From the NCBI RefSeq assembly GCF_021390645.1, contig NZ_JAJEJT010000002.1, forward strand, positions 1,922,001-1,986,000: 64,000 nucleotides of DNA. Direction: 5' to 3'. Positions 18,714-60,355 of the stretch are shown here, piece after piece (position 1 is the stretch's first letter; each line of letters starts with the position of its first letter). This stretch comes from Paraburkholderia flagellata (GTDB lineage Bacteria; Pseudomonadota; Gammaproteobacteria; Burkholderiales; Burkholderiaceae). Position numbers and translations under genes: made by a program. The notes under the pieces are model-generated. The model had not been told where the DNA came from, did no database searches, and saw only the letters and a program-made list of their open reading frames with translations.

Positions 18714-18727
18714 AGGAGTAGCTCCGC

Positions 18728-23000: not shown

Positions 23001-23097
23001 GGTTCTCCAGGTTGCTGCAGCGTCTCACATCGGAGATAGACAGCCGAACACGAAGTTTCACCTTCACCGCCGATGAGAACGCCTTTCGTGTCGACGC

Positions 23098-24384
23098 TTA
23101 TCTCGCAGCCCCCTCTCCCGGGAGGTTCTTGGAAAGGGGGCGCTCAGGAACAGCCGGCCTTGCCATCCCCTTCCTCCGTCCGGCCTTAGGTCTATCGTTG
23201 GATTTACCCTTTCCTCCCTTATTTGCCAGCTTTTCAAAGTCGACATCAGGAGCATCAACAATCCCAGGCTCTTTCCCTTTATAAAAATTCTCAGGCGTCA
23301 TGTTCACGTACGCGGCTTGCGCCCAATACTCGGATCGACGATCTTCATCCTGCGCGGCATAAAACATCGCCATCTCGATTTTCACCAGTGTACGCATCCC
23401 AACGTGAGCCTCATCGATCATTCTCTTCAGATATCCCCACTCAAGAACCTCACTGTGGCGCAAAGACTCCGTGATTGCGCGCAATGTAATCTTTGTGCCG
23501 AGACCAAGAATCCCCCAAAGCTGACGCATCATATAATGACAGTTGCCAATCGTTAGCACGTCCTCTCTTATGTAATCATTTCCTAATTCCTTTGAGATAT
23601 CCCGCAGCACACTTGCATATTGAATGGCATCCTCTTTAATCTGAGGATTGAATGGCGCAACCCAAACCGGCCGAAGCCGCGCTTTAAGTTGCGCGTTCAT
23701 CCATAGCAGCGGAGCGATTTCAGGACCGCCCGCGAGAACGGCAGGTTTCTTTACCAGATCCGCCACCTCCTTGATCGACATGGCAGCTTGCATCGGAGCG
23801 CGGTTCTTTAGTAAAAGAGGAATCTCTCCCGCTTCGTCCAGAAAAACAGCCCCATGCTCGCCGGCGTTGATGCCCTTCACCAATCTCCTCAATATCGCTG
23901 AATGCGTCGGCTTACGCTTAGCGCCTTTGACCTGTTTTTTATCTACCGCACCTGCTCGAGGATCATCGTTGTACTCCACTGTATCTTCGATGAGTGGCTC
24001 CTCAATTCCCTCTAGCAGTCGCCAGCAAGTCTCTATGTGGTCGAACTTTCCTGCGTTTGGAGATGGAATCCGCGCATATGCGGATCCATACGCTGGCAGT
24101 CCTCCTTGTCGCGCCTTCTCGGCAAGAACATCCGCCGAGTATTTGAGCAATTTGCTCTTACCTACGTGCGTCGGTCCAATAGCGACGAGTAGCAGCCCCG
24201 GCTCCTCCCCTGATATGTAATCCATTACCTCATCGTAGCGATTCAAAAAATACTCATACTGAATCGTCAGGACGTCGCGCACATAGTGAATGTGCGCCTT
24301 TTGTTCGTCAGAAAGCAGGTTCGTACTTCGGGCATGCTCGCTTATGTCCACTTTTATCCTCCTTCCCCAGTTTTGACTGACCAC
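23098..24384 (-). CDS. tnsC: TnsC/TniB-like AAA+ transposition ATPase
   Basis: A 428-residue AAA+ ATPase. Walker A is GPTHVGKSK (residues 70-78) and Walker B is AVFLDEAGE (DE at 183-184). The N-terminal helix HYVRDVLTIQYEYFLNRYDEVMDYI and the sensor-like GGPEIAPLL fit TnsC/TniB regulators, which polymerise on target DNA and activate the transposase. The basic, Pro-rich C-terminal 60 residues could serve as transposase- or TniQ-contact tail. It is 49 bp downstream of the transposase gene, in the same operon. TniB is usually near 300 residues; this length is closer to Tn7 TnsC (about 550). Confidence 0.92.
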   Translation of the reverse strand: MVSQNWGRRIKVDISEHARSTNLLSDEQKAHIHYVRDVLTIQYEYFLNRYDEVMDYISGEEPGLLLVAIGPTHVGKSKLLKYSADVLAEKARQGGLPAYGSAYARIPSPNAGKFDHIETCWRLLEGIEEPLIEDTVEYNDDPRAGAVDKKQVKGAKRKPTHSAILRRLVKGINAGEHGAVFLDEAGEIPLLLKNRAPMQAAMSIKEVADLVKKPAVLAGGPEIAPLLWMNAQLKARLRPVWVAPFNPQIKEDAIQYASVLRDISKELGNDYIREDVLTIGNCHYMMRQLWGILGLGTKITLRAITESLRHSEVLEWGYLKRMIDEAHVGMRTLVKIEMAMFYAAQDEDRRSEYWAQAAYVNMTPENFYKGKEPGIVDAPDVDFEKLANKGGKGKSNDRPKAGRRKGMARPAVPERPLSKNLPGEGAAR

Positions 24385-24433
24385 GCACGGTTCGCACTAA
24401 AGCTCCCACTCAGGTGAATCGGCGGAGATATGA

Positions 24434-27184
24434 TCACGAAGCGCTGTAGCTCCTGATCTCGTCTTCAGAGATGGTCCATTCTGGTTTATCCAGGTCGACT
24501 GCCTCAACCGCTTTCTCTGGCACCGGCTCACGCTTTTCCTTCCCTGAATTTGGCCGGTCAGGGTCGTCCGTGTCTCCAACAGAAGTCTTCCCCTGATTCT
24601 CAAGCGCCATTCCCATGATCAGTTTTCCTTCGGCCGTCTCGCGCATCTTCAAAATCCCAGCAGCGAAATCGCGTGCGCGTTCGCGCCTGAGGGTTGCCAT
24701 TGCCTGCCCCTCCGTGCGCAAGTACTCTTGATACGCAAGCCGTTCCATGTGTGTGAGCTGCGACAGCAGTTCATAGTAGTCAGAGAAGCACTCTTCCCAC
24801 CGGCCTGCTACCCAAACGATGACGCGTCCAATGGAATCAGGATCGTATCGAATGAGAACCCATTGCCCAACCACGTCTGGCTCACGAAGCCTGGGATGAA
24901 AATACTCCAGATTTAAGGCCCGAATCGATCCTCTACGCGTGACCTTTCTATAGCCGCCTCTAATCGCGGGCATACATAAAAATACGAATTCCTCGTTGTT
25001 CTCCACAACTGGAATGTGCGAGGTCCCGACCTCACTCAATATGCGATTTTCGAATTCAACAATCGTCTCTGCGCGCGTTCTCGATGATGGATTTCTTGGC
25101 GCCCTCTCATAATATTTTTCATCGAACGCATTACGAATTTCCGTCATTGTATGAAGAGCCGTCTTCTTGGGGTCAAATTCGTCAAGCAAAGCGCGGTAGT
25201 CGACGTCGGGCTTCCGGTAGCCGGAGATGTTCATTGTCGTCTCCGCATCGTCCGCGCGAAAACTCGACTCAACCGGCTGTCCGTCGCGTGGACTCCTCGA
25301 TCGACGATTCAGCTTGATTACACCATACCTCGCGATAGTGTCCTCAAACTGCTTGGCCTTGAATTCGAGCGCTCTGTCACACACAATAATCTGAGGCAAT
25401 CGATCATTGTTTCTTCTTACACATTCGATTAGCAATCGATACAAGGTCTCATATCCCGGAGGGCCGTAGTGCATGACATGCGCGAGCACCCTGCCGCTGC
25501 AAGCGTCGACCATTTTAGAGCGCCACACTTCTCTTTTGGCTACGGCCCCAGTGATTGCGCAGACTGGATTCACTGGTAGAGGGGTATGGTCGATATGGGC
25601 CACTTCCATCGGAATTTTCCCTTTCACCAAACGGTTGACTTTTCCATGTGGAACATAGTCACCGTACGGATAGGCAGCAAATTTCCCGTCCTGCTCCCGA
25701 ACAATCATGCAGAAATCGAGTGCCTTGATTCTCTTACGAATGGTCTCCCTGCTCACTGGCCGAACACCGGCCTGCCTGCAACGTTCAGTGTAGATTCCTG
25801 TAATCGTTGCCGGCGATGGTGCCGTATCGGTCAAGAAGTCTTCATCGAGACACGTGCGCCAAATCTCGTATTCTCCGTCTGTTCGACTAATGTGTGATCC
25901 ACAGTTGTCGTACGATGTTAGAAGAGCCTCCACGGGCGACGTCCCCTGAACCTGAGCCAGTCGCACTCTTCGGATTTTTTCCTCGCGCGTTCTAGCGCGT
26001 ATTGGCTTACCAGCACGCTTCCCGTACGGCCAAATCCATTGATCGATTGGTCGATTGATTAGTTCGAATATCGCAAACGCTTCGCTTCTCCTCTTTTCGG
26101 AGACACGCATAATCCGTGGCACCTCCGGTACGTCGTAGTTCCAGGCATTTCTGGCGCAGTAGTCCCTCACTTGCGCGATGTCCAGCTCGAGAACACGCGT
26201 GTCCTGTCTGAGCGAATAGGACGTTCTCCCCGCATTGAGGACATGCCACGATTTCCCATCCCACTGAAATTCTTGACCATCCACTGGAAGCGGGCGAATG
26301 GAGCGGGGAGCCAGTGCACCTTGTGCGGCACGTTCGAGCTTGTGCGCCAGGAAAGCTTGATGATCCCGATAGACAAATACAATCTCTGTCTCGCGAAGAT
26401 CCCGCTCAGTGATGGGGAAATATACAAGCCCGTGCGCGATGGCAAACTTGATCGCCTCCGGCGAGTGGCCGCTCTGAATAAGCTTCCGACGTGACGTCAC
26501 GATCTCGTTGCGCACATCTCTACAAACCCGCTCAACCTCCTCCTCCTGGGGACGCCGATAGTCGATGTCATAGCATCTAGCCAAATAGGCACAGTTTCCA
26601 GCGAGGTATCCGCCGAGTTGCCTTTCACTAAGCACCACGTGGCCAATCCCGTAGCGGACCAATGCCGCGTCGATGGAAGGCGAGTACCACGACTGATCAT
26701 CGCGCTTTGCATATAGTGAGTTATCGTTGAGTTTTTCCTCCTGCCGAACTTCAAAAAAGTAGACTCGCGCAGTTTCGATAACCAGGGCGTGAAATAGATG
26801 ACTTGTTGTGCCAGTTCGCCGCCCCGCTGAATCAACCGTATCGATACCGCGCAGTCGGACTCGATTCCAAAACTCCAGTACATCTGGCGAACAAAGATGG
26901 TTGTCAGCGTAGAGCAGAGCAGTCAACTCCAGACTGACGCTGCCAAACGTCATCACACGCCCCATTTTCGTAGAGGGGTATCGGCCAGTAACGTTACCCA
27001 CCTCTCTATCTCCGCGAGGGGTGCTGTCGGGTTGTCCGAGGCGAATCTGGCGGACCAGCGCCTGCCCGAGGCTCGTCACCCGGGCGTGCTCTAGAACCTC
27101 ACTCAACCGTTGATCACTTAATGGAAAACCTGGCTTTGCCCATTCCTGTATCTCAGTTCTGTCGGCACTCTCTCTTGCATTCAT
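24434..27184 (-). CDS. Fused TnsA-like/TnsB-like DDE transposase
   Basis: A 916-residue transposase from the ATG at 27184 (GGAG eight bases upstream; an in-frame start at 27214 adds ten residues). Residues 430-660 form the rve/Mu DDE core with D532 (HIDHTPLP), D603 (VCDRALEF, normally DNGxEF) and E639 (QPVESSF). A Mu-type beta-barrel and a helical tail follow. Residues 60-200 look like a TnsA endonuclease domain: YPSTKMGR, VSLELTALL and FFEVR. The expected PDF aspartate reads in SHLFHALV and the ExK reads EVR, so the nuclease site seems degenerate. A TnsAB fusion of this size fits a Tn7-like element; loss of 5'-cleavage would favour replicative transposition. Confidence 0.88.
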   Translation of the reverse strand: MNARESADRTEIQEWAKPGFPLSDQRLSEVLEHARVTSLGQALVRQIRLGQPDSTPRGDREVGNVTGRYPSTKMGRVMTFGSVSLELTALLYADNHLCSPDVLEFWNRVRLRGIDTVDSAGRRTGTTSHLFHALVIETARVYFFEVRQEEKLNDNSLYAKRDDQSWYSPSIDAALVRYGIGHVVLSERQLGGYLAGNCAYLARCYDIDYRRPQEEEVERVCRDVRNEIVTSRRKLIQSGHSPEAIKFAIAHGLVYFPITERDLRETEIVFVYRDHQAFLAHKLERAAQGALAPRSIRPLPVDGQEFQWDGKSWHVLNAGRTSYSLRQDTRVLELDIAQVRDYCARNAWNYDVPEVPRIMRVSEKRRSEAFAIFELINRPIDQWIWPYGKRAGKPIRARTREEKIRRVRLAQVQGTSPVEALLTSYDNCGSHISRTDGEYEIWRTCLDEDFLTDTAPSPATITGIYTERCRQAGVRPVSRETIRKRIKALDFCMIVREQDGKFAAYPYGDYVPHGKVNRLVKGKIPMEVAHIDHTPLPVNPVCAITGAVAKREVWRSKMVDACSGRVLAHVMHYGPPGYETLYRLLIECVRRNNDRLPQIIVCDRALEFKAKQFEDTIARYGVIKLNRRSRSPRDGQPVESSFRADDAETTMNISGYRKPDVDYRALLDEFDPKKTALHTMTEIRNAFDEKYYERAPRNPSSRTRAETIVEFENRILSEVGTSHIPVVENNEEFVFLCMPAIRGGYRKVTRRGSIRALNLEYFHPRLREPDVVGQWVLIRYDPDSIGRVIVWVAGRWEECFSDYYELLSQLTHMERLAYQEYLRTEGQAMATLRRERARDFAAGILKMRETAEGKLIMGMALENQGKTSVGDTDDPDRPNSGKEKREPVPEKAVEAVDLDKPEWTISEDEIRSYSAS

Positions 27185-29113
27185 TTCCTCTGCTCCATTC
27201 ACCAAATAACACATCGTCCCGACGGGTCACCGCGACGGCTCACGCTCACATTCGAGCGCCACTAAGTCGCAGTGCCTCTCACAGGTCAGCAGAGTTTTGA
27301 TTTAGAGCGAGGACGACCAAAGACGAACGGCTGATGATTCGACTCTCATCGCGGCACCGCCCAAGAGGTCGTCAAAGGGAAACGACTCAGCCGCGTTGAA
27401 CGCGGAACCCACATACATTCGAGTGCCTGTTCCGCCGTAACGTGAACACTCTCGCTATCTAACGTGTCCAGACGACCACTCGGCTCGGCGGCGCATGTTG
27501 CTCGGCTACGTGCAGCACTACATATGCAAGCTGCCCCAAGTGACTCCGGTTGGCAACGTGCCTCGACATCTTGTGCACGTAAAGTTGAGCTCGTGGGGTC
27601 TTGGTTGCCGATGCGCGTTGCCAATGTCGCGATCAACGCAAGCGTGCTTGCCAGGACGCTTGCGCTAGCGAACGAAGCTGTCCGCGTTGTCACTACGTCG
27701 GTTCTTGGCGTACGAACTCCGCCCCGGGCCGTAACGAGCGCGTCAATGGCTTCGTGCTTTGAAGCGTCCAGATTGACGCTCGACGTGATATCGATTTCCT
27801 GTCGCCGGTACATTCCCTTTGCTCCGGATACTGGTGCCAACATTGCCTGAACTTGGGTCCGTTGGGCAAGAAAGCGTACACGCCGCTCCCGTAGCCCATA
27901 CCCACGTAGATTCCGAGGCAAGGTACGCTCAGTGTCCGGCAGTCCACCGCCGCGTAAATTGGAAATCGATGTTCATCTCTGTATGGAAAGGTGTCTTCTA
28001 CCGCTACGTTATTCGCACATGATGCGCGGCCTCAAATCGGGCCTGTGAGGAAGTTTGAACTCAATTCAACGACTGCGTTCGGGCTCTATCGGAGATCGGT
28101 TGGACTGCCCTGGAGACAGCCCAACAAGTCCGTAAACAGTCTCGCCGAGCGCCATAGAGAAGGCGCTTGCAGGCGCACTACTACGGAGTTGCTGTCCAGA
28201 TTCGAATGGAGTCAGTCAGTGTTTGCATCGCAACCTCCGCTGATTTCTGCAACCACTTTGTTTAGCGCTTCCGACTGCGAGCGACCGTACTTCCGGCCAA
28301 ATAGCCAAGCACGCCGACCCGTGACGATCTCGATGCCGCCGGCGTGAGTCTGGCCGAATGCATCGTGTTCCGGCAGCGTACTTCATTGGATGCCTGTCGC
28401 TGTGTACGACGATGCCAGCAATCCCCGCCTACTCCAGTCCAATCTCGGTAGGACCGAAAGTTGCCAATCCGTACTCCCATACATCCTCCACATTCAGGTA
28501 CTCAACAAACGCCGCGAATCTACAAGCGGCTACCTACGGGTTAATGCAATACAACCATGGGCAAAGTGGCTGGGGTACTGCCCCTACTGTGCCTCGATCG
28601 AGCAAGACTCACAGCACTCGTTCGACAGCCTGCTCTCGTCGACATACAGCTCCCTTGCCTCGTCTCGGACTGCTACCGAGCCGGCGACTTCAACGTGCAC
28701 GTTTGCCGCGTTTTGGTACGGTTTCCTTTATATCCTGTCGGGGAATTCATTTTTAGTCTACGCGCAACAAGATGGCAAGAAGTTTCGCTCTCGAAACGAC
28801 GCCATGTTTTTCGGCATTTCCATTGATATCAAACGTATATGACCAATTCACAATTTGAACCGGAATCCATTTCCCGACTCAGGCGGCGACTTTAAAGTTA
28901 ACCCTGGTTGCATTCTTCTTGAATTCTTTCCGAAGAGACGTACTATTCGGTATCTCAAACATTCAAGATCAAGAGAATCGACGACAAGACGGATAGCAAA
29001 CGTGTACGAGATAGCAGCCTACCTGACTAACTTCACCCCACTTTCCCTGTACTCGCGAGCCATCTTCATCCTGCATGAATCTCTCTTATTAACTAGTTAC
29101 TTAGGATACCGAC
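27185..29113. other. Long region without intact genes
   Basis: About 1.9 kb beyond the transposase start, where the adjacent Tn7-like end would be expected. I could not identify repeated transposase-binding sites or a terminal TGT/ACA pair by eye. Frames at 27346-27921 (-), 27464-27850 (+) and 28390-28842 (+) lack family features. A disrupted coding stretch is listed separately at 28212-28540. Confidence 0.45.
28212..28540 (-). pseudogene. Disrupted coding remnant of unknown family
   Basis: On the minus strand one frame reads FAAFVEYLNVEDVWEY, then GLATFGPTEIGLE, an internal TAG, then AGIAGIVVHSDRHPMKYAAG. After a one-base shift near 28370 another frame continues AFGQTHAGGIEIVTGRRA, WLFGRKYGRSQSEALNKVV, to a TGA at 28214. 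The two halves join smoothly in composition and look like real protein. I do not recognise the family. Confidence 0.4.
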
Positions 29114-36184: not shown

Positions 36185-37183
36185 ATGGCCACAGCAACGC
36201 TATGCAATTATGACCAAAGGGAAATCACCATCGAGGAGGCGATTCGGCTGAGGCAGACGGCTCGTGCGAATGAGCTCCCAACGCTGACCTTCGCCTGTAC
36301 AGAATGCGGTCGCCCGGTTCGTCCGCATCAAGGCGGTGGCCATACTCCCGCTCATTTTGAGCATTTGCGGCGCAATAGGAATTGCTCGTTAAGCCACAAG
36401 CCGACGGACCGGACGCATCGTGCACCCAAACACGCTGGATCGGTCGACACTGCGGAGCTAGCGCGCTTAACCGCTGGAGGCGACGACTACATCCGCACCA
36501 AAGATGGGGAGGTCAAAGGACTTGCCCTGCGTCTAGATTTGAATGAAGGGGCTCCTGATGTCATCGTTGTCGGGAAAGGACCGCGCATCGAACATCGCGC
36601 GATGCTCTTGCGCGATACGCCGCATGGTGTTCCGACCTATGTTAAGCGGGGCACGAATTCATGGGAGTATCTCGGCGAATACAAGGCGACTGCCTACCGC
36701 ATCGACGCACCGACGATTAAGCAGTACCGTGGCGAGCGCCCAGCCAGCGACATTGCAGGTATCTTATTTCTCGAATCCGTTGAAGCCGTTTCTGTAACCG
36801 TGCGCGGTGGTGGGTTTGCTGACCCGCAAACCAGACGGGAAATCGAAGAGGCCGCAATCAACTTCGTTAAGCAGGAGCTACGGGCCCAAGGATTTGCTGT
36901 CGAGGATCGCCAGCGTGAAAACTGCGGTTACGATCTCCTTGCCCGACGCGGACAGGAAGAAATTCTTTATGAAGTAAAGGGCGCAGACGCTGTCGTGCCG
37001 CGCTTTTTCATCTCGCGAAACGAACGCAGGTGCTCGATGCTGAATGAGAATTGGCGTCTAGCGGTCGTGACGTCTGCCCGTACAACTCCGAGGCTACACG
37101 TTCTGACGCCAGCGGAAATGGAAGAACGCTTCACGTTTGAATGCCTCGCATGGGAGTGCACGATAACAAATCCAGCAGACTGA
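36185..37183 (+). CDS. CoiA-like zinc / DUF3883-like nuclease-fold protein
   Basis: A 332-residue protein in three parts. The N-terminal 70 residues have a CoiA-like zinc motif (FACTECGRPV with C38/C41, then HTPAHFEHLRRNRNC with H57/H60/C67). A middle part (about 150-180) contains GTNSWEYLGEYKATAYRID, recalling small ligand- or base-sensing modules. Residues 222-300 match the DUF3883 pattern: INFVKQELRAQGFAVED, NCGYDLLARRG (D250) and EILYEVKGAD (E263, K265), a PD-(D/E)xK-like site. DUF3883 often occurs in defence and restriction proteins. SD GGGGAAAG precedes the ATG. It stands alone, next to transposase debris. Confidence 0.75.
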   Translation: MATATLCNYDQREITIEEAIRLRQTARANELPTLTFACTECGRPVRPHQGGGHTPAHFEHLRRNRNCSLSHKPTDRTHRAPKHAGSVDTAELARLTAGGDDYIRTKDGEVKGLALRLDLNEGAPDVIVVGKGPRIEHRAMLLRDTPHGVPTYVKRGTNSWEYLGEYKATAYRIDAPTIKQYRGERPASDIAGILFLESVEAVSVTVRGGGFADPQTRREIEEAAINFVKQELRAQGFAVEDRQRENCGYDLLARRGQEEILYEVKGADAVVPRFFISRNERRCSMLNENWRLAVVTSARTTPRLHVLTPAEMEERFTFECLAWECTITNPAD

Positions 37184-50267: not shown

Positions 50268-52109
50268 ATGAAAGCATACATACGAAAGGCGACAGATCGA
50301 CTATCCATACATCCTCGAAGCATATCTAACGCCTCCTTTTCGCTTGCGGGAAGACGCCAAGCACTTCGAATAATCGCGGGCTTGGCGTTGCCGAGTGTCT
50401 CGACCGTAGCTTTCGCCACGCTCGGCGGTGCAAGCGCATCCTCAGCCCCGCCTCCTCCGACCGAACAGAAGATCCACCCCATCCTCAAACCGCTGAAGAT
50501 CAACCGAGGCGGCAAGCCCACAGGGTTTTGCATCGACGTCCACGCACATATCTTCAACGCGAGTGACATAGACGTCGTCGGTTTCATCAGAAAGGATGTT
50601 GGACATAAATTTGTCGGCGATATTGAGCGCTTTATTGATGGCATGGCGTTGGTCGCCGGAGAACTCCAGAACATAGAAATCTCTGCTGCGAAAGAGCTGG
50701 GCTTTTTGCGTGAGATTGCCGAAAAAATGAGAGGAATGAGCGATGTAAATATCGCCAAGGAGATGGACGGGTTCGCAAGTGGTAAACGCGACTCTATTGC
50801 CCGAGATATCGCGCAGGCAATGACCAAACATGACGGCCTTATAGATCTATACAAGAAGCTCAAACGCGAATTCTACGAACAGTCGCAAAAGGCAGAGTCA
50901 AAACGCGAACCGCCCAAGCAGGCCACGCCCATCCCGGGACCAACGACTTTCGATGAAAAGACTGTATTGAATGCGATAGATCCCGCGAGAAGGATCAGGG
51001 AATATGACCGATTCACTGCCGGCATCCCCGGGGTCATTCCGCGCTTCGATCCCGATGGCACATTCGAACTCGTCGGCCACATGCTGTCCTACCGCTGGAT
51101 GAATCTGAGGGATTACGCGCGCTTCTACACAGAGAACAATAACGCGTTCGGCATCGATGCGATGTTTGCCTCATTTGTCAACTTCGACCGCTGGCTCAAC
51201 ATTGCGGGCACGTCGTCTCAGGCCGAGCAGATGGAGCTACACGCCCTTCTTTCCAAACTCAGTGGCGGCTATATGCTGCCCATTGTGGCCTACAACCCAT
51301 GGACCGACATCGCAGAGAAGGATGCGTCATTCAAGTTGGTGCAAGACGCGGTGCTGAATCACGGGTTCATCGGCGTAAAGATTTATCCACCAACTGGATT
51401 TTTTCCCTACGGCAATGGCTCGTTGCATTACCCAACTAGCGAACGCCATCCCCCATTGGATGCGCTAGATGAGAAGTTGTTGCAGATGTTCTCGTGGTGC
51501 GCGAAAAACAATGTTCCTGTGATGGCACATTCGGCAGAATCCAACGGGCGAGATGCCGGCAGCGACACGTTTGGTGGTCCGGACGGCTGGAAGGCGCTAC
51601 TCAACAGGATCGGCACGACACCACCAGTCATAGGCTCGCTTGCGCATTTTGGCGGAGGCGAAAGCGCGTCAATGACTGCACCGAACAATTGGCCGGAGCG
51701 GTTCGCGGTAATGATGGCGTCGCCCCAAGGTAAACGGCTTTTCGGCGATCTCGCGTTTTGGGACCAGATGTTGGACTGTAGCCTCCCGCACGATAAATGC
51801 GACGTCGCGAAAGAACGCCTTAGGACCGCGTTTTCGAAGAATGTTGACCTCTCCAAGAGACTGATGTTTGGAACCGACTGGGACATGCTGTCTCAGGTTC
51901 CGCGATGGGACCGCTATCCGACCATCTTAGTCAGAAATCTACGCGGGATCGTTCTTGATCTGAACGCGTTTCTTTACGAGAACGCAATGAGATGCTTTGG
52001 CTTAGAAAATGGCGGGGCGCAGCGAAGCCGCGTTCTTAACGAATTGAGTAAGGTCGAGGGCCACCTGCCGGAGTGGCTTCAGTTCGCGCCATCCGTTGAT
52101 GGAACTTAG
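50268..52109 (+). CDS. Exported amidohydrolase (metal-dependent hydrolase, TIM-barrel)
   Basis: A 613-residue protein of the amidohydrolase superfamily. The N-terminus has a twin-arginine-like signal (SLAGRRQALRIIAGLALPSV). The first metal motif is GFCIDVHAHIFNASD (HxH); later metal-site candidates are VPVMAHSAES and FGTDWDML, the usual His and final Asp. A long helical insertion (about residues 140-230, with KRDSIARDIAQAMTKHDGLI) separates the first strand from the rest, which is unusual. Substrates of this superfamily vary widely. The next gene is 90 bp downstream on the same strand and may be co-transcribed. Confidence 0.85.
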   Translation: MKAYIRKATDRLSIHPRSISNASFSLAGRRQALRIIAGLALPSVSTVAFATLGGASASSAPPPPTEQKIHPILKPLKINRGGKPTGFCIDVHAHIFNASDIDVVGFIRKDVGHKFVGDIERFIDGMALVAGELQNIEISAAKELGFLREIAEKMRGMSDVNIAKEMDGFASGKRDSIARDIAQAMTKHDGLIDLYKKLKREFYEQSQKAESKREPPKQATPIPGPTTFDEKTVLNAIDPARRIREYDRFTAGIPGVIPRFDPDGTFELVGHMLSYRWMNLRDYARFYTENNNAFGIDAMFASFVNFDRWLNIAGTSSQAEQMELHALLSKLSGGYMLPIVAYNPWTDIAEKDASFKLVQDAVLNHGFIGVKIYPPTGFFPYGNGSLHYPTSERHPPLDALDEKLLQMFSWCAKNNVPVMAHSAESNGRDAGSDTFGGPDGWKALLNRIGTTPPVIGSLAHFGGGESASMTAPNNWPERFAVMMASPQGKRLFGDLAFWDQMLDCSLPHDKCDVAKERLRTAFSKNVDLSKRLMFGTDWDMLSQVPRWDRYPTILVRNLRGIVLDLNAFLYENAMRCFGLENGGAQRSRVLNELSKVEGHLPEWLQFAPSVDGT

Positions 52110-52199
52110 GCGAGTGACAGGCGATGTACTATCTTCTAGAACTACGTATCGCTTGGATCTGATTTCACCGAGAAACCAACTCAAATATGAGGAGTGGAA

Positions 52200-53498
52200 A
52201 TGGTCCTTCACGATTCAATGACCAGAGTCTACCTCGAGTCTCCCGGCGTTCTCACGGCTCGGGAGTCGACACCGAATCCCGAGCTCGCACTGCGCCTCGT
52301 CGAATCGACATCGCAGATTGTACTGGCTGTCGTGGTCATAGTCATCGCGGTCATGGTTGCCCTCGCAGTCCGCAGGGGCCGCAACTTCTTCTACCGCATG
52401 AAGGATGAACAGCATATGTTCGAAAGGGAGCGTATGAGTGAAATTCATTCACTGCTTGAGATATCCCGGCGGCAACAGGCTGAATTCGCCAAACTGCTCG
52501 AGTTTATGAGCATACAAAACACCACAAACCTCGCAGCCACTGAAGGATCTGAAGGCATCTGGCGAGACCAGAGCGAACAAGCGCTCTATGCGATGTACGA
52601 CTCGCTCTCTCCAACCGAGATAGCAATTGCAGTCTTCACGTCACCGGCGAGCTTCCCTTCCATGGATCGCGGTCCGATTGGTTCGAGGTTCGTCACTGCC
52701 ACCGCAAAAGAGACTTATCTATGGGCGGGCGCCGTGGCCTATGTCATGGAGAATCGCCCCGAAACTTCGGATCGCCAGATTCTTGAGGCCCTGAATCGCT
52801 CGTTGCGAAGGACTGTGCAGCAGAATTTATCTTCGTTTTCTGGCTGGTCCGTTTCACCACTCCCGTTCGAAGCCCAAGCTCGCTTGATTGAGGACTTCGT
52901 GCTTGAGGCGGGATTGGATGTCTCTTTCCGCGAGATTGAAGCACGCACGAACGCAGCATACGAGATGCTGTTGTGGCGCGGCTTGATCGAAGACCCGCTA
53001 TGGAAAGGCGTGTCGGGCGTGGCACTCGCCGTCGCGCTGATCGTGCCGGTGCAGTGGTCGAGCACGCAGAGCGGGTTTTCGGTCAACGCCCTTGGCTGGC
53101 GTTATACGCAGCTAGGGGAAGGAAATAATACCGAGCGGTCGTTCAAGCTTCGCGTCAAGGAGGTTTCGAAGGCGGTAATTGATGAAATGGTTCCCGGCGT
53201 TTTGAAGATCGTTGGCGAGCTGAGTGAATCACCGAACCGTGTACAGGAAGACTCTGCTAGAGGCACAGGGCAGCCGTTCGGAAAGGCGAACCCGACGCAG
53301 CAAATGCAGGAGGCTCTCCGTCGAGCTGGCTTCGACCCGGGACCGGTAGATGGATTCTTCGGCCCCCTTACCCGAGGTGCTCTGATGGAATTTCAGCGCG
53401 CTTGGGGCTTGCCGGCGACAGGCAAGCCCGATGCGCAATCGATACAAATGCTTCAGCTCAAAAAGCCTGACCTATCCACACGAGGATCCGGTTTCTGA
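52200..53498 (+). CDS. Membrane-anchored protein with C-terminal peptidoglycan-binding domain
   Basis: A 432-residue protein from the ATG at 52200 (GAGGAG five bases upstream). One transmembrane helix (SQIVLAVVVIVIAVMVALAV, about residues 41-60) is followed by a helical region (SEIHSLLEISRRQQAEFAKL). An uncharacterised middle domain comes next, containing WVxP-like hydrophobic segments. The C-terminus is a PG_binding_1 repeat: QQMQEALRRAGFDPGPVDGF, FGPLTRGALMEFQRAWGLPA, TGKPDAQSIQML. Such proteins sit in the cell wall. Coupled with the exported amidohydrolase it could be an envelope-targeted pair. Confidence 0.75.
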   Translation: MVLHDSMTRVYLESPGVLTARESTPNPELALRLVESTSQIVLAVVVIVIAVMVALAVRRGRNFFYRMKDEQHMFERERMSEIHSLLEISRRQQAEFAKLLEFMSIQNTTNLAATEGSEGIWRDQSEQALYAMYDSLSPTEIAIAVFTSPASFPSMDRGPIGSRFVTATAKETYLWAGAVAYVMENRPETSDRQILEALNRSLRRTVQQNLSSFSGWSVSPLPFEAQARLIEDFVLEAGLDVSFREIEARTNAAYEMLLWRGLIEDPLWKGVSGVALAVALIVPVQWSSTQSGFSVNALGWRYTQLGEGNNTERSFKLRVKEVSKAVIDEMVPGVLKIVGELSESPNRVQEDSARGTGQPFGKANPTQQMQEALRRAGFDPGPVDGFFGPLTRGALMEFQRAWGLPATGKPDAQSIQMLQLKKPDLSTRGSGF

Positions 53499-53587: not shown

Positions 53588-54412
53588 TCAATTGCGGTTG
53601 TATCCGAAGGGGCGCGTCATAAGAATCTCCTTCCAATGGTTTTCCCGTTTGGCGATGTCGTCCTTCATCGTGTGCAGGTCGGCAATTTCCAGTATCGAGA
53701 ATCTGAGATCGGCAGCCCGGTCAGGGCCCGCCTCGATGCCGAATTCCCTTTTTAGGGCAACGTTGTGGCCATGCGTCGTCGCCGCGTAAATACACCACCG
53801 CCCCCAAATACCCTCTTCGCCGTCCGCCTTCCCGACGTATAGCTTGCCGGTCTTGGCGTCGGTAATGAGATAGATGCCCTTCACACTAGAAAGTGCCGCC
53901 TTCCACGATTCGACATTTTGCCGCACGACGATATCTAGTTGCCTTTTTGTCAACTGCACATTTTTGTAGCCTGGAAACAAGCTGATGCTCAGGCGTTCGC
54001 GAAGCAGCTCGGAAATGAGTAGATCATCGGCGAGAGTTTCACCGCGCGGGTACGAATTTCGCTGCTTATACTCGCTGGCGAGGTATAGACGTCCCACAAA
54101 TTCTTCGGCAGCCTCGACACGGGTCATGTTATATACGTAGTGGGGTTGTGCGTCCTCTACACGCTCTTCGCAACCATGGACTTGGAACAAGCCGACGAAA
54201 AGCCAACGCGTCGGGCTGTTTGCCTGAACCAAAGAAACAACGTACTCGCGTCCAAAATTTCGATTTCGCTGCCAGTTTTGCCATTCATCGAAATTACCCT
54301 CGAGAAAGACGTCGAGGGGGTGTTCGTGTTGGTTAAATCTTGCCAAGTGCACCTTAGACTTCGCGACGGAAAAATTAGCCTCACAAGTACGCAACAAATC
54401 GAACAACACCAA
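53588..54412 (-). CDS. GIY-YIG domain protein
   Basis: A 274-residue protein from a TTG at 54412 with GGAGG five bases upstream (a GTG at 54409 is an alternative). The C-terminal 100 residues are a GIY-YIG nuclease domain: KGIYLITDAKTGKLYVGKAD with GIY at 179-181 and YVG at 192-194, then RWCIYA (R205) and RENHWKEIL (E257), the metal-binding Glu. The N-terminal 170 residues are unlike known families (GNFDEWQNWQRNRNFGREYV). GIY-YIG domains cut DNA in restriction enzymes, homing endonucleases and anti-phage proteins. The gene lies just downstream of the PLC-KAP fusion, on the same strand with a 108-bp gap. Confidence 0.85.
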   Translation of the reverse strand: MVLFDLLRTCEANFSVAKSKVHLARFNQHEHPLDVFLEGNFDEWQNWQRNRNFGREYVVSLVQANSPTRWLFVGLFQVHGCEERVEDAQPHYVYNMTRVEAAEEFVGRLYLASEYKQRNSYPRGETLADDLLISELLRERLSISLFPGYKNVQLTKRQLDIVVRQNVESWKAALSSVKGIYLITDAKTGKLYVGKADGEEGIWGRWCIYAATTHGHNVALKREFGIEAGPDRAADLRFSILEIADLHTMKDDIAKRENHWKEILMTRPFGYNRN

Positions 54413-54520: not shown

Positions 54521-57500
54521 TCAACGAGACTTCGCTTCGAGGGAATACGTTCTGATTCGATTTGGATTGCAGAAGGAAAATCGGGCAACAAATGGCGCGT
54601 ACAAAGCCATTCTTACCAACGTAGAACTACTGTCGTGTTCCGGAACAAGGAGCTTAAGACCACGACTGAAATCCGTTGCACCGGGACTCCCCTGAAATAG
54701 CCCCTTTTCGAGTCGCTCTATTAGAGAGAGTATTCCGAGATCTTCTTCTGAAGCAATTGCCTGTTCAACTGCATATTGCTCAAACGATGCGGCGTATCCA
54801 GTGACGAACGCCAATTGAAGCAGAACTGCCTTGTAGTGCGGTGCCGGACCGCCAGGCTGCGCAGCGGACAACCAGTCGCTTGGCGTGGAATTCCAGAGAG
54901 TTGCCTTAATTACCCTATAACTATTGGCGAACCGTTTCAATCGACGGGGCGTGTTGCCAGCTATAAACGCGACTTCTTTCATGAAGTCTATTTCGCTGCG
55001 TTGCAAGACCACCCGTTCCTCAATTCGCATTGTTGGAACGTCGTTACCACTTAGCGTGCTTGCGACGCTTTCATCGCGTGCACTTCCAGGGCGAGGGCTG
55101 GGACCTTGTGATTCGATTTTAGGCTGAGGACCAAAGCCGGTGGGTTGCGCCGGAACTGGCTCATCGGGAGGTAACTCAGGGAGAGGGGCGTCGCCTGAAC
55201 CGATACCGGAACCAGATTGGGTGGAACCTTTTGATAGCGACGGGGCCGACGGTTCCGTTGGAATGTCGTCCCTGGTGTAGGCTTCGAGGAGTGCTGCTCC
55301 AGCGAGGTTGTCGACGGGCCTCACCCAGTAGGGAATTTGAAAAATCTTCTCAATGTAATCGTCGGGCTCAGCGACGATATCTCGGCGGCGGATATACCCA
55401 CCAGAATCTTCATTGTTCTGGCTAGTGAACGGCTCGGTAGCCAATTGCCCCCTATAGTAAGCTCGAAGGGCGCTAGACACCCAGCGGTAATCCACCGCGA
55501 CCACGACCACGAATAACGGAAATGCCAGCAGAAGGTGAATCGCTTGGAGAACCTCTGCAACTTTGTCAGGCCTGCACCGGTCGAGGTCATCAATGTAAAG
55601 GATAATCCTGTCAAAGTACCGAAGTTCTCCAGTAGGTGCGGATTCTTCCAGTCGCAGACCCTCGCGTTCTAACACGTCGCTATATCGCGCGATGGTTTCC
55701 TTCTCATAGTGGTCCAACGGCACAGTTTGCACGTCAGAACGGCACATAATTTGACTTAGCTGATCGAAGTCTCTTCGTATCGTGGCAACCAACCCTAGGT
55801 ACCGTGAGTAATCTTCGCCGCTCGCTTTCTCGCAAATGAATTCGTTAAGAAGCGCATGCGGGGACGTACGCTGGAAATCTTGTTTTGCGATCAAAAGCGC
55901 TTCCTCGGCGGATGCGACCACTCGTTCTGCTACAGCTACCCTCTCTCGTCTTGCCGCTCCGTCCTCCGCCGTATCCGAAGCTATCTCGCGTTGTATTCGC
56001 TTTGCTACTTCTCCTAACTTCGCAGTGGCCTCCGCTGTTTTTTTCGCTATCGAGTTGAGTGCAGTAAAAAAACCAAGTGCAGTCGCAATCATCCCCCCGA
56101 CTACGTTTGCAGCTTTTTTCGCGAGTTGCCAATCCAATATTCTTACCAACTCTCCGGCGGCCCAAGATCCCAAGATCATGAAGCCAAGGACGACTGCTGC
56201 CCAGACAAGGATTTGACGAGGGCCTAGCCGGAGCTTAGCTATCGACTTGAGAACGAGCACGTTGCGGCTGAGCAACGTGCGTGTTCTCTGCGCCTCCGTC
56301 ATCAACTGCCTGACCGATGCAATATCGGCTGGTAGCCCCAGGTCGTCCGCTGCCTGTAGCAGCTCATTTTGCTGTTCTGGCGTCATACCCCTTGCAAGCG
56401 CGTCGACGGCGACACCAGCAAGTTTTCCTGCGCTGATGCCTCGACTTCCAGCGCCACCCTCGGCCTCCGTCTCGTGACGAACTTCTTTGAGACTTGCTTG
56501 CGCGCGCTCGAGCTGTATGCGGGCCTCATTCACGCGCTCGATGCTCTCCATTCTGAGTCGCTGCGGTGTCGCGAGTTTACTAAATAACTTCTTTGCTCGG
56601 ATGTCTCCGTTTTCCTTTTTTCGCAAATGATCCTCAAGATTGTTAAAAATATGAGTCGCAAGGCTCGCCCACAAATTTGTCTCGACGTAATGCCAAGCAT
56701 TGAATTTTATTTGAACCGCCTCATTGGTGTATGCGTCACCCTTCAGCAACTTCAGCAAGTCGATTTGTGTCTCCATTCTCTCCATGAAGGACGATTTTCC
56801 CGCACCCCAGTCTCCGAATATTCCGATAGCAAAAGGCGCGATTGTTTTCTTGTCGATTGCAATCCGGGCGAAGGCCTCCGCGTCGGTTTGCGTCCCAAGT
56901 GCATCTCCAATGATCGTTGTCCGATCGTTGTCTAGAACGGCGCGACGCCTAGCCTCCAGCGGGTTGTCGAGGAGACCCGCCGTATGCTCGGATTGTGTCC
57001 CCGGTACATCGCCGATGGCGGCTGTCTGCTCGTAGTCTCGCGGGTCTGGGCTCCTGCCCCCTAGCAGGTTGTTGAGGAAATCCACCGCATGCTGGCGTGT
57101 GTGCATCGCGCCGAGCGTGGCCGCCGGGTCGAGCCCCGAGCGCCGTGCCGTGCCGCTCACGAGACTCTTCTGGAGGTCGTTCAGCGGGCGGCCGAGACTA
57201 GTCGCAATGAAGCCGGAGGCAGGCGGCGCTGAGATTGTCGGCAGGTCAGTACGCGGCGTGTCGAGCGTTAGCACCTGGGCGAGCGTGGGCGCCGCCTCAA
57301 CGCGCCTGCTTGCGAGCATGGCGGCAGGCGCGATGTCGAGCCAGTCGCGCAGCGTGGCGAGAATCGACGTGTGGTCGTAGGGCGTGGCGTTGGGCGAGCG
57401 GAACACGGTACCCGGTGCGATGTAAGGCGAAACCACGACCGCTGGCACGCGCACGCCAAAGCTGTCAAAGCTGAAGTCTTCGTCGCCAGGGTAGCTCGCG

Positions 57501-58432
57501 GCATCGGGCGGCACGGCGTTGGCGGGCGGCAGCACGTGGTCGTAGGTGCCGCCGTGCCCGTCGTAGGTGATAACGAGCAACGTTTCGGGCCACGCGGGCG
57601 ACGTGCTCACCGCCTCCCAGATGTCGTAGAGAAAGCGCTCGCCCGCATAAATGTCGTGTGGGGGATGCTGATCGTTCGGATCGAGCAAAAAGCGCGGCTC
57701 GATGAACGAATACTGCGGCAGCGTGTTGTTCTGGCAGTGTGAGACGAAATCGCTGAAGCGCTGGAAGTTCGGCTTGTATTTAGCATCCCATAACGTTGGG
57801 AACATCGTGAGCGTGAGAGACGGCGCAACGAGCTCGTCGCTGTAAACTGCCCAACTCACGCCCGTGTCGCCCAGTACGTTGAAAATCGTACGTACCTGCC
57901 AGTTGAACGGGTCGGGCGGTGAGCCATTGTCGACATGCCCGTTAGACGTTCCCGCGTGGGCGAACGCGCGGTTGGGCCAGGTCTGGCTCGGCACGCTCGC
58001 GAACCAGGCGTCCGAGACAGCGTATTCGCGCGCGAGCGTGGAAAGCACCTTCAACTGATCCGGGCTGTGGCACTGCATGACCTGGCTCGCGTCCGTCGTC
58101 GAGGTCGTCTCGTAGTTCTGCACGAAGCCGGACATGGGCGCGGCACCTGCCGCGTCGCCGAGTAGTTGAGCGCGCACGTTTACGAACGTATCTTGCGGAT
58201 CAGGGTCCGGCAGCGTCGCGGTGTAGGCCGGCGTGGTCGCGAGTATGGTGCCGCCCTCCCTCGTCGGATTGCCGAGACCTGCCTTGAGACCGTCGAATGG
58301 ATGCTCTGCGCTGGAGTTGGGCAAGAAATGCATGTGGCTGCCGCCGCTCGCGTACAGGCCGCCGAGCATCGTATCAAACGAGCGGTTTTCGAGCATCACG
58401 ACGACTATATGCTTGATGTTCAGGATGGACAT
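54521..58432 (-). CDS. Phospholipase C / KAP-NTPase fusion
   Basis: A 1303-residue protein with two halves. Residues 1-400 are a PLC/AcpA-type phosphoesterase: HIVVVMLENRSFDTMLGG (ENRSFD at 15-20), HDIYAGERF (H259), TYDGHGGTYDHV (D291, H293, D298, H299) and YDHTSIL (D353, H354). Residues 500-1300 are a KAP P-loop NTPase: Walker A IFGDWGAGKS (538-547), two membrane helices (741-760 and 776-795) and Walker B RIILYIDDLDRC (942-953). No signal peptide is seen. The N-terminal half is clearly richer in GC than the NTPase half, with a change near 57060. I know of no such fusion. SD GGAGAG precedes the ATG. Confidence 0.9.
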   Translation of the reverse strand: MSILNIKHIVVVMLENRSFDTMLGGLYASGGSHMHFLPNSSAEHPFDGLKAGLGNPTREGGTILATTPAYTATLPDPDPQDTFVNVRAQLLGDAAGAAPMSGFVQNYETTSTTDASQVMQCHSPDQLKVLSTLAREYAVSDAWFASVPSQTWPNRAFAHAGTSNGHVDNGSPPDPFNWQVRTIFNVLGDTGVSWAVYSDELVAPSLTLTMFPTLWDAKYKPNFQRFSDFVSHCQNNTLPQYSFIEPRFLLDPNDQHPPHDIYAGERFLYDIWEAVSTSPAWPETLLVITYDGHGGTYDHVLPPANAVPPDAASYPGDEDFSFDSFGVRVPAVVVSPYIAPGTVFRSPNATPYDHTSILATLRDWLDIAPAAMLASRRVEAAPTLAQVLTLDTPRTDLPTISAPPASGFIATSLGRPLNDLQKSLVSGTARRSGLDPAATLGAMHTRQHAVDFLNNLLGGRSPDPRDYEQTAAIGDVPGTQSEHTAGLLDNPLEARRRAVLDNDRTTIIGDALGTQTDAEAFARIAIDKKTIAPFAIGIFGDWGAGKSSFMERMETQIDLLKLLKGDAYTNEAVQIKFNAWHYVETNLWASLATHIFNNLEDHLRKKENGDIRAKKLFSKLATPQRLRMESIERVNEARIQLERAQASLKEVRHETEAEGGAGSRGISAGKLAGVAVDALARGMTPEQQNELLQAADDLGLPADIASVRQLMTEAQRTRTLLSRNVLVLKSIAKLRLGPRQILVWAAVVLGFMILGSWAAGELVRILDWQLAKKAANVVGGMIATALGFFTALNSIAKKTAEATAKLGEVAKRIQREIASDTAEDGAARRERVAVAERVVASAEEALLIAKQDFQRTSPHALLNEFICEKASGEDYSRYLGLVATIRRDFDQLSQIMCRSDVQTVPLDHYEKETIARYSDVLEREGLRLEESAPTGELRYFDRIILYIDDLDRCRPDKVAEVLQAIHLLLAFPLFVVVVAVDYRWVSSALRAYYRGQLATEPFTSQNNEDSGGYIRRRDIVAEPDDYIEKIFQIPYWVRPVDNLAGAALLEAYTRDDIPTEPSAPSLSKGSTQSGSGIGSGDAPLPELPPDEPVPAQPTGFGPQPKIESQGPSPRPGSARDESVASTLSGNDVPTMRIEERVVLQRSEIDFMKEVAFIAGNTPRRLKRFANSYRVIKATLWNSTPSDWLSAAQPGGPAPHYKAVLLQLAFVTGYAASFEQYAVEQAIASEEDLGILSLIERLEKGLFQGSPGATDFSRGLKLLVPEHDSSSTLVRMALYAPFVARFSFCNPNRIRTYSLEAKSR

Positions 58433-59167
58433 GGCTCTCTCCGTCGCGCGTTAGCAGGGCGAGGTTGACGCAGAGTATTGGTACAGGGGCCGGCATTCCG
58501 CAAGGTTAGGGAACCCTAAGGCTTCGCCGGCGCTTCGTATGTGCTCTTCGATTGTGACCCGAGGCATGGCCCCCTCACCGGGCTGTCTTTTTCGCAGCGA
58601 TTTTGGTACTGCTGCTGACCGTCGAGCATTGGACCGATACCCTTTCGCCGGGTCCGACGCCTATTCGAGGTGACACCAGAAGCGCCCTCCAACCAAGCAG
58701 GTCGCTGCGGCCCTCATCTGCCGAGATACGCCCGCGCGGACGCCCCTACAGAGCGGCCTGCCTGAATCAGGATGTGTGCCAGTGCTCATTCCCCAAACAC
58801 CAGCTGCATTTGGAAAGTTCGCGGAAACTTTCCGTGGTGCCCCTCTCCCCTCAAACCCACTATCATGCGGAAGACTGCAAATTTCGCGGTAACTTAACGT
58901 GGACGCGAAGTAAAACTTAAGTTGTCAGAGCAGCTGATCCAGCCGCTGCGAGCCCTGCCGATCTCAGCCGTACGTGCGCCATCGCACATTCCTGCGCCTC
59001 GCAATCCGAGGTGCAGAGGCTATATTTGTAGATCTAAGGTTCAGCACGCGCATCGCACGCGATTTCGCATTTGCGGAGGCAGCACCCGACACGTTACTCA
59101 GGATTGCGAACAAGTGTGACGTCGATTCGCAGCGTGTGGCGGTTCAATTGCGTGTAAGGAGCTAGCG
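58433..59167. other. Divergent promoter region with repeated motif
   Basis: About 735 bp between the PLC-KAP gene and the DUF2235 gene. It must contain both promoters. A perfect palindrome and a partial direct copy of it lie at 58812-58902 (listed separately). No gene is supported. Confidence 0.5.
58812..58902. repeat. Palindrome plus degenerate direct repeat
   Basis: Perfect arms GGAAAGTT (58812-58819) and AACTTTCC (58826-58833) surround CGCGGA. The sequence TTCGCGGNAACTTNNCGTGG is found at 58818-58837 and again at 58883-58902. The layout resembles paired recombinase or regulator sites. Confidence 0.6.
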
Positions 59168-60355
59168 ATGTCCAAAACGATAGTCTTTTGCGCAGACGGT
59201 ACGTGGAACGGACCCGAAGATCCGGCAGGAAAAGGCGACGGAGTCGCTCCCGAAGCTGAGGCGGGATGTCAGCCCGAACTGACCAACGTATGCAAGCTTT
59301 TCGCGTGGCTCGATGGAACCATGCTGCCCGAAGGAACCGACTGGGGTGGCATCGAGATGGAAAAGGCCCTTTCGGACGCAGACGGCAACCCCGTACAAAT
59401 CGCGAAATATATTCACGGGGTCGGAAATTCCCAGCAACTGATCGATAAAGTCGCGGGCGGCGCGTTTGGCGTCGGTGTCGTCGCCCGCATCGCGCGCGGG
59501 TATACCTACATTTCGCGCAACTTCGAGGCGGGCGACAGCATTGTGATCGTCGGATTCAGCCGCGGAGCGTACACCGCGCGAGCCCTCGCGGGACTGATTG
59601 CGGGACAGGGTCTGCTTCGGCCCGATCTCGCTGCCATCGACGATCAGAATCGTTATGACACCGCGGTGGCGGCCTGGTATCGATGGAGGCACGGCCAGGA
59701 TACGACATTCCAGAAGATAGCGGACGGAGTGCTGGAGTTTTTGACGATCCACACCGCCTTCTCCAACCCGAAGCCTTTGGACGCCAATTCCTTTGTAGAC
59801 GCAAAAATCGCCGCCGTGGCGGTTTGGGATACGGTGGGTTCGCTCGGCATCCCAATCTACTATCAAGGTTCCGCCATCGATCTGTTCCGGTTCTGCGATC
59901 TCACTCTCAGCCCGAAAATTGGATTAGGCGTGCACGCGGTCTCGCTCGACGAGCAACGCAGGCCGTTCGAACCGACTTTGTGGAATCCCAACCCGAACGT
60001 GACACAAGCGCTTTTTCCCGGCGGTCATTGCGATGTCGGCGGCGGCTATCCCGATCACGGCCTCTCCGACGGCCCCCTGCTCTGGGTCGCGGACAGGTTG
60101 CAGCATACGGACGTGGGATTGCACTTGGCGCTGCGTCCTCCCGTTGCCGTCCAATCCGATCCATTGGGCCCGCGACACCGGGAATGGGTAGAGGATCGTG
60201 TCTGGCTGGCCGCCGGTGTGGCGCCGCGAGCCTTCCCGGCAGGCATGGTTGTCAACGACAACATACGGCAGCGCATGAACGGCCAACCTGAGGATCTTTT
60301 TGGGGCTGCCGGTCAGCAGCCGACTTATTCGCCGGGTAACTTGCCCCCGCGCTGA
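59168..60355 (+). CDS. DUF2235-family (Tle1-like) alpha/beta hydrolase
   Basis: A 395-residue DUF2235 protein. It starts SKTIVFCADGTWNGPED, the family hallmark. The nucleophile elbow is VGFSRGAYTARALA (S131 in GFSRG), with a candidate Asp221 in VAVWDTVGSLG and His287 in FPGGHCDVGGGY. The known relative Tle1 is a phospholipase effector of type VI secretion. No Vgr, PAAR or immunity gene is visible, so delivery is not shown. SD AAGGAG precedes the ATG. It diverges from the PLC-KAP fusion across 735 bp, which puts two lipid-hydrolase families side by side. Confidence 0.9.
   Translation: MSKTIVFCADGTWNGPEDPAGKGDGVAPEAEAGCQPELTNVCKLFAWLDGTMLPEGTDWGGIEMEKALSDADGNPVQIAKYIHGVGNSQQLIDKVAGGAFGVGVVARIARGYTYISRNFEAGDSIVIVGFSRGAYTARALAGLIAGQGLLRPDLAAIDDQNRYDTAVAAWYRWRHGQDTTFQKIADGVLEFLTIHTAFSNPKPLDANSFVDAKIAAVAVWDTVGSLGIPIYYQGSAIDLFRFCDLTLSPKIGLGVHAVSLDEQRRPFEPTLWNPNPNVTQALFPGGHCDVGGGYPDHGLSDGPLLWVADRLQHTDVGLHLALRPPVAVQSDPLGPRHREWVEDRVWLAAGVAPRAFPAGMVVNDNIRQRMNGQPEDLFGAAGQQPTYSPGNLPPR

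What the first reader, a model, noticed from the sequence alone, without database searches (positions are those of the whole stretch)
54521..58432. Phospholipase C fused to a membrane-spanning KAP NTPase
One 1303-residue reading frame joins a complete PLC/AcpA-type phosphoesterase (motifs ENRSFD, TYDGHGGTYDHV, YDHTS) to a complete KAP P-loop NTPase with two membrane helices and intact Walker motifs. KAP NTPases are recurrent in bacterial defence, and phospholipases are common cell-killing effectors, so a sensor-ATPase driving a membrane-lipid-cutting effector is a natural hypothesis. The base composition changes at the join (about 57060), and a short motif is repeated near it (IGDVPGTQ at about 473-480 and IGDALGTQ at 508-515). 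Both suggest a recent fusion event. I know of no described system with this architecture.
Basis: partly seen in the sequence, partly recalled or inferred. Interest (0 to 1): 0.88.

Follow-up and report, generated by a model that had tools for sequence, protein, structure and literature searches.

The report
Broken phospholipase domain on membrane ATPase
A bacterium has joined a copy of a lipid-cutting enzyme with a broken active site to a membrane ATPase, and among the cases examined similar joins arose several times, each with the active site broken, which suggests that the dead enzyme works as a sensor or bait rather than as a weapon.

Summary
The 1303-residue fusion is real: it lies on the minus strand and joins a PLC/NPC-type phosphoesterase (PF04185) to a KAP NTPase. 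It is no unique accident: 28 other database proteins carry both Pfam domains. The phosphoesterase half lacks the equivalent of Glu300 of NPC4, whose alanine mutant loses activity, while 22 of 22 stand-alone genus orthologs aligned, one from the same genome, keep it. Among PLC domains fused to KAP, nSTAND or NACHT NTPases, 0 of 38 keep all six scored catalytic residues, against 316 of 323 other PLC proteins. On a sampled tree with Pfam-defined labels, 8 of 8 independent fusions carry the loss (p 0.008; 9 of 9 with a Shedu fusion); the least favourable counting gives p 0.06. Walker motifs are kept in most, and the KAP model best matches RADAR RdrA. Best reading: a pseudo-PLC recognition module, sensor or bait, on a membrane ATPase of a probable defence system. 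Ligand, effector and defence role are inferred.

The parts
54521..58432 (-). Fused gene, 1303 aa: pseudo-PLC domain, linker, KAP NTPase
   Evidence: ATG start preceded by GGAGAG
57063..58517 (-). Segment 85% identical in DNA to the stand-alone PLC locus of the same genome (contig C4), including 85 bases upstream of the start; its 3' end marks the fusion joint
   Evidence: blastn against L104, L129, L130
57344..58417 (-). PF04185 phosphoesterase domain, residues 6-363
   Evidence: Pfam; phmmer to NPC4 8hav E 7.4e-59; model of residues 1-500 pTM 0.85
57557..57559 (-). Codon 292 (Gly), equivalent of catalytic Glu300 of NPC4
   Evidence: alignments; NPC4 residue roles
56933..57061 (-). Linker, residues 458-500, between the PLC-derived segment and the KAP part
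   Evidence: 11 of 19 stand-alone orthologs listed are 462 residues long, the rest 461-491
54524..56932 (-). KAP NTPase half, residues 501-1303; among 144 genus genomes found only in this one
   Evidence: model pTM 0.66, best matches RdrA
56792..56815 (-). Walker A, GDWGAGKS, residues 540-547
55577..55600 (-). Walker B, LYIDDLDR, residues 945-952
56171..56227 (-). Strongest candidate membrane helix, residues 736-754, within the KAP insert
   Evidence: hydropathy
58437..58442 (-). Shine-Dalgarno-like GGAGAG
   Evidence: sequence
53588..54412 (-). Downstream neighbour matching the PADLOC defence protein UzuA over nearly its full length; functional link to the fusion not shown
   Evidence: PADLOC E 3.4e-64; in 4 of 141 genus genomes

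Best explanation
The protein is a membrane-tethered KAP ATPase carrying a copy of a phospholipase-C-type enzyme with a broken active site as its recognition domain. SHOWN: fusion of a PLC copy to a KAP part of foreign composition; intact Walker motifs in the window; loss of a catalytic Glu while the domain stays under purifying selection; the same coupling of fusion and active-site loss in several independent cases. INFERRED: the domain is inactive, and its pocket or surface still binds what the active enzyme binds (a phospholipid head group or other phosphodiester, or a phage or competitor protein that engages PLC) without cutting it. Binding would release or assemble the KAP part into a ring that hydrolyses NTP at the membrane and disturbs the cell through the membrane insert or a partner, as an abortive or defensive response. 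In this view the PLC half is sensor or bait, not weapon.
Confidence: 0.5

Rival explanations
1. The pseudo-PLC half is a regulator of the active stand-alone PLC: it pairs with, or competes with, the cell's own enzyme, and the KAP ATPase controls that at the membrane.
For: An 86.5% identical paralog with all six residues lies in the same genome. Kaur et al. [quoted passage not shown]
Against: The PLC half is not closest to its own paralog (87.7% to the copy of another genome, G045). The paralog lies on another contig (C4), and the fusion is the only KAP match in this genome, so the two are not a unit. Whether hosts of the other fusions carry an active copy was not testable.
Confidence: 0.18
2. 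The PLC-like half is a passive lipid- or membrane-binding anchor or scaffold, without sensing.
For: The domain is modelled well (pTM 0.85) while its active site is broken; a membrane helix candidate lies in the KAP insert.
Against: A related module sits at the C-terminus of STAND proteins, the sensor position in characterised antiviral STAND proteins (PMC10907252, passage). Anchoring alone does not explain repeated loss of catalytic residues.
Confidence: 0.14
3. One reading: an active or conditionally active phospholipase effector driven by the KAP ATPase.
For: Five of six catalytic residues remain in the window; some KAP proteins carry a lipase with GHSLG or TIR domains.
Against: E300A dramatically reduced or abolished NPC4 activity; 0 of 38 NTPase-fused domains are intact; P0002 has lost three of the six.
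Confidence: 0.12
4. A chance fusion decaying without function, or two proteins made from one frame (an internal GTG start for the KAP part).
For: A database record from a contig of the same length as this one begins at residue 450 (P0003, 854 aa).
Against: P0002 keeps the fusion; dN/dS 0.155; a Shine-Dalgarno-like GGAGAG precedes the ATG; the architecture recurs.
Confidence: 0.06

Closest known systems
NPC4-type non-specific phospholipase C / AcpA-type phosphoesterases (PF04185)
   Same: Pfam family and most active-site motifs; phmmer E 7.4e-59 to NPC4
   Different: Catalytic Glu300 replaced by Gly; fused to an NTPase; by eye no signal peptide (no predictor was run)
KAP P-loop NTPases, including QatA of QatABCD
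   Same: KAP Pfam match and Walker motifs; weak QatA match over the P-loop stretches (64.6 bits). QatA is a predicted KAP-family NTPase; mass photometry suggests heptamers or octamers, and it binds DNA (PMC13279940, passages)
   Different: Far below the QatA equivalog cut-off of 600 bits; no Qat partner among the four flanking proteins tested; carries a hydrophobic insert and a PLC domain
RADAR RdrA
   Different: Only 12-17% identity; no adenosine-deaminase match among the four flanking proteins tested
Conflict systems with inactive enzyme modules (Kaur et al. 2020, PMC7159879)
   Different: In the passages shown, the search words phospholipase and KAP occur only in the reference list; of three places with phosphoesterase I saw one, on calcineurin-type enzymes
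STAND defence proteins and Shedu (SduA)
   Same: Related degraded PLC domains occur at the C-terminus of nSTAND1 or NACHT proteins, some with TIR or SEFIR, and at the N-terminus of a SduA protein
   Different: The window protein has neither a STAND nor a SduA domain

Membership tests
Catalytic PLC (PF04185, NPC4 mechanism) | PF04185 domain | tested here: met
   234 bits against cut-off 23
Catalytic PLC (PF04185, NPC4 mechanism) | E23, N24, T158, H264, D299, E300 (NPC4 numbering) | tested here: not met
   E300 is Gly; the other five present
Catalytic PLC (PF04185, NPC4 mechanism) | Phospholipid hydrolysis | not testable with these tools
   needs an assay
KAP NTPase | KAP_NTPase Pfam domain with Walker A and B | tested here: met
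   83 bits against cut-off 20; motifs
KAP NTPase | Membrane helices inserted in the P-loop domain (recalled definition) | tested here: inconclusive
   one segment above cutoff, a second just below
QatABCD | QatA equivalog score | tested here: not met
   64.6 bits against 600
QatABCD | qatB, qatC, qatD neighbours | tested here: not met
   none among the four flanking proteins scanned
RADAR | RdrA-like ring ATPase fold | tested here: inconclusive
RADAR | RdrB adenosine deaminase neighbour | tested here: not met
   not among the four flanking proteins scanned
STAND (nSTAND/NACHT) defence proteins | nSTAND or NACHT domain in the window protein | tested here: not met
   only PF04185 and PF07693 reported
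Shedu | SduA_C (PF14082) in the window protein | tested here: not met
   not reported; present in relative P0136
Anti-phage defence system | Protection against phage | not testable with these tools
   needs a challenge assay

The most novel reading that the evidence does not exclude
Bacteria have repeatedly turned a phospholipase C into a dead bait and spliced it onto unrelated immune switches (KAP ATPases, STAND receptors with TIR or SEFIR, a Shedu nuclease). This would be a bacterial counterpart of the integrated decoys of plant immune receptors (recalled concept): the bait domain is renewed from locally available active PLC copies, while the switch half comes from elsewhere.
Probability: 0.33. 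Interest if true: 0.88.

Novelty: new variant of a known kind. Interest (0 to 1): 0.72.

Why it matters
It turns an apparent enzyme-effector fusion into a candidate for a general, testable rule: when a phospholipase C joins an immune-type NTPase or nuclease, its active site is lost. If true, it gives bacterial immunity a new class of bait or sensor domain, points to phospholipid metabolism or PLC itself as something attackers act on, and warns against calling such proteins phospholipases: where the listings give a jgi name for a PLC-KAP fusion, it is phospholipase C, except for one hypothetical protein (P0044).

Tried and rejected
Rejected: fusion as sequencing error (P0002 shows it too). Rejected: the short repeat as a duplication scar. 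Rejected: active-site loss as a mere result of carrying extra domains (61 of 106 intact proteins have 200 or more extra residues). H79 of NPC4 was left out of the score because stand-alone relatives, the genus orthologs included, also lack it.

Bias found and removed: in the trees I had labelled degraded proteins with non-NTPase partners as fused (five: P0004, P0129, P0136, P0161, P0164; with P0329 six), which is circular; these gave 5 of 5 (p 0.0625) and 9 of 9 (p 0.0039). I repeated the test with labels set only by Pfam NTPase domains: 6 of 6 pairs, p 0.031 (95 rows, the six left out), and 8 of 8, p 0.0078 (93 rows, six PLCs of IMG/VR contigs added, the five non-Shedu proteins left out, some long-branch and near-identical rows dropped, among them P0150 and P0151). 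With P0136 added by its SduA domain: 7 of 7, p 0.016 and 9 of 9, p 0.0039. With the other five counted as free: 5.5 of 7 the same way, 1.6 not differing, p 0.06. In one search I wrote the residue label of the IMG/VR rows from motifs; one search confirmed it for all seven full-length ones. Trees are quick searches of samples (101, 101, 85, 66 and 94 rows); one search is a careful one of 25. In the residue counts duplicates were not removed, P0044 is a fragment scored on three positions, and P0218, scored as not intact, is an alignment gap: its ENR motif is present by eye. Eleven further PLC genes of the order are intact too and were not counted (L133 in two pieces).

Led nowhere: the term sets Shedu/SduA/phosphoesterase/N-terminal domain, KAP NTPase plus phospholipase C, and PF04185 plus PF07693 gave no paper. 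No fusion was seen in plasmids (0 of 24 matching records cover 80% of the query), in the 80 best genome-contig loci kept out of 569, or in other sampled order genomes (own only, among 250). IMG/VR contigs hold 7 full-length stand-alone PLC with all six residues, but 0 of 6 proteins of L137 match PHROGs, so their viral nature is not supported. The PLC model could not be searched against structures.
Full report
WHAT IS THERE. The frame at 54521-58432 is real, lies on the minus strand and encodes 1303 residues. Residues 6-363 match PF04185 (E 2.9e-69); PF07693 (KAP NTPase) matches in two stretches. The start ATG follows GGAGAG. The gene is a chimera: GC3 is 0.805 for residues 1-457 and 0.532 for 501-1303. 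The DNA from 57063 to 58517, which includes 85 bases upstream of the start, is 85% identical to the locus of a stand-alone PLC gene on another contig (C4) of the same genome; the similarity stops at the joint. A database record from a contig of the same length as this one starts only at residue 450 (P0003), so that gene call misses the fusion.

WHERE IT SITS. The fusion is the only KAP match in its genome. In the genus the KAP half is found in 1 of 144 genomes (this one), and in 2 of 299 family genomes drawn evenly, the second at 31-38% identity. Synteny with the near relative G041 runs from 58971 rightwards at 92%. The nearest matching part of the other side of that site maps about 134 kb away in this genome (C2:1846847), so the gene lies near one end of a large variable region, which also holds two TniQ-like genes and a weak TnsB-like match. 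The next gene downstream matches UzuA over nearly its full length (PADLOC E 3.4e-64) and occurs in 4 of 141 genus genomes. The named relatives of the stand-alone PLC suggest a Paraburkholderia-like host, but no tool named the genus.

NOT AN ACCIDENT. The database holds the same pair of Pfam domains in P0002 (73% identity, whole length) and in P0007-P0026, P0032, P0044, P0122-P0124, P0299 and P0330: 29 proteins with the window. Beyond KAP, a related PLC domain sits at the C-terminus of eight nSTAND1 proteins and one NACHT protein (P0125-P0128, P0130-P0132, P0151; P0150); P0126 and P0127 begin with TIR and P0150 with SEFIR/TIR. In P0136 it sits at the N-terminus of a Shedu-type protein (SduA_C E 3.4e-27; PADLOC SduA E 2.8e-63).

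THE KEY RESULT: THE ACTIVE SITE IS BROKEN. In Arabidopsis NPC4, alanine at E23, N24, H79, T158, H264, D299 or E300 dramatically reduced or abolished activity, and E23, N24, T158, D299 and E300 bind the metal seen in the crystal, which the authors think is not needed for activity (PMC9837106, passages read). H79 is not conserved even in stand-alone bacterial relatives, so I scored the other six. The window protein has E, N, T, H and D but Gly at E300. The 22 stand-alone genus orthologs that I aligned, 56-88% identical and one of them from the same genome, all keep the six. Of 170 positions invariant in those 22, the window breaks three (P33H, E292G, F453L), P0002 breaks ten, among them three catalytic ones, and P0004, which carries a different C-terminal part, breaks six, three of them catalytic.

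THE RULE. Over the proteins and loci collected, 0 of 36 NTPase-fused PLC domains keep all six residues, against 200 of 206 others. The 119 further proteins add 0 of 2 and 116 of 117. Totals: 0 of 38 and 316 of 323. The seven others not scored intact are P0218 (alignment gap; motif present by eye), P0004, P0129 (WD40 repeats before PLC), P0136 (Shedu), P0161 and P0164 (about 300 residues of unknown kind before PLC), and P0329 (PLC followed, by eye, by hydrophobic segments). Relatedness inflates a simple test (Fisher p 5e-37), so I used trees. With labels given only by Pfam NTPase domains, 8 of 8 independent pairs on well-supported branches show fusion and loss together (two-sided p 0.0078); with the Shedu fusion 9 of 9 (p 0.0039). 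A comparison on another sample gave 6 of 6 and 7 of 7. The least favourable counting, with five degraded non-NTPase proteins as free, gives p 0.06. Extra domains by themselves do not break the site: 61 of 106 intact database proteins have 200 or more residues outside the PLC domain.

DIFFERENT ROUTES. KAP fusions mostly lose E23, N24 and E300 and keep D299 (27 of 29). STAND fusions keep E23 and N24 (8 of 9 each) and have lost both D299 and E300 (kept in 0 of 9). H264 remains in 35 of 38. Intact stand-alone PLCs of IMG/VR contigs nest among the KAP-fused ones, which points to more than one loss inside that clade. The KAP half was also joined on separate occasions: in the KAP tree the PLC carriers need at least four changes on starred branches, and P0001 and P0002 together are sister to two Burkholderia KAP proteins without PLC. 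P0007 and P0299 share 74% in the PLC half but only 32% over 129 residues in the KAP half, while the KAP half of P0007 is 68% identical to P0081, which carries a class-3 lipase instead. So the parts have been assembled repeatedly.

STILL A DOMAIN, NOT A RUIN. dN/dS of the window PLC against its paralog is 0.155 (median of 136 stand-alone pairs 0.133). The window branch is longer than those of its relatives (0.14 against 0.012-0.07 in the nearest clade). AlphaFold2 gives pTM 0.85 and mean pLDDT 77 for residues 1-500. The data do not reject P0001 and P0002 as one clade (p-AU 0.32), so one fusion may underlie both.

HOW IT MOST LIKELY WORKS. I read the PLC half as a recognition module that binds without cutting, held on a membrane-tethered ATPase that assembles when the ligand is met. 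In the eight nSTAND1 proteins one predicted membrane segment lies between NTPase and PLC, which would place PLC on the far side; in KAP proteins the PLC would stay on the side of the NTPase. So the ligand need not be met in the same compartment, a point that my model does not resolve. Kaur et al. [quoted passage not shown] this protein fits that theme with a module that I did not see named in the passages shown. Defence is inferred from company (UzuA, RdrA-like fold, TIR, SEFIR, Shedu) and was not tested.

LIMITS. Hit lists are capped at 120 of 429, 2000 and 4581 hits; most relatives come from unnamed metagenomes, so their neighbourhoods could not be read; residue loss is evidence of, not proof of, inactivity, and the window has lost only one of six. 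A lipase with GHSLG and TIR domains in the same N-terminal slot of other KAP proteins speak for an effector slot and against my reading.

Noticed in passing
window 17394-27214, minus strand: Two TniQ-like genes (17394-18713, 21906-23000) and a 926-residue protein with a weak TnsB match (24434-27214): a possible Tn7-like element in the variable region.
   Followed up: no
window 59168-60355: DUF2235/Tle1-like phospholipase gene (PF09994) beside the fusion; it lies in the part syntenic with G041 (92% protein identity), so it seems to belong to the backbone, not to the insert.
   Followed up: partly
window 50268-53498: Amidohydrolase-like gene followed by a gene with a peptidoglycan-binding domain and, by eye, an N-terminal hydrophobic segment; function unknown.
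   Followed up: no
window 36185-37183: Protein with a NO VEIN C-terminal domain, weakly matching the ends of several defence proteins.
   Followed up: no
window 8889-10076: Match to mad3 of the MADS defence system (PADLOC E 1.6e-27), with partial mad8 similarity.
   Followed up: no
P0136 (669 aa, database protein): PLC domain with broken active site fused to a Shedu (SduA) nuclease-type domain; its nearest stand-alone relatives (76% identity) are intact.
   Followed up: partly
L136-L141 (IMG/VR contigs): Stand-alone PLC genes with all six residues that nest in the tree among PLC-KAP fusions; no PHROG match among 6 proteins of L137, so viral origin is doubtful.
   Followed up: partly
P0081 (1091 aa, database protein): Class-3 lipase with GHSLG fused to a KAP NTPase whose KAP half is 68% identical to that of PLC fusion P0007; a possible active-lipase counterpart.
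   Followed up: partly
P0005, P0006 (Burkholderia KAP proteins): Nearest KAP relatives of the window outside the PLC fusions, with an N-terminal part of about 280 residues and no Pfam match there.
   Followed up: no
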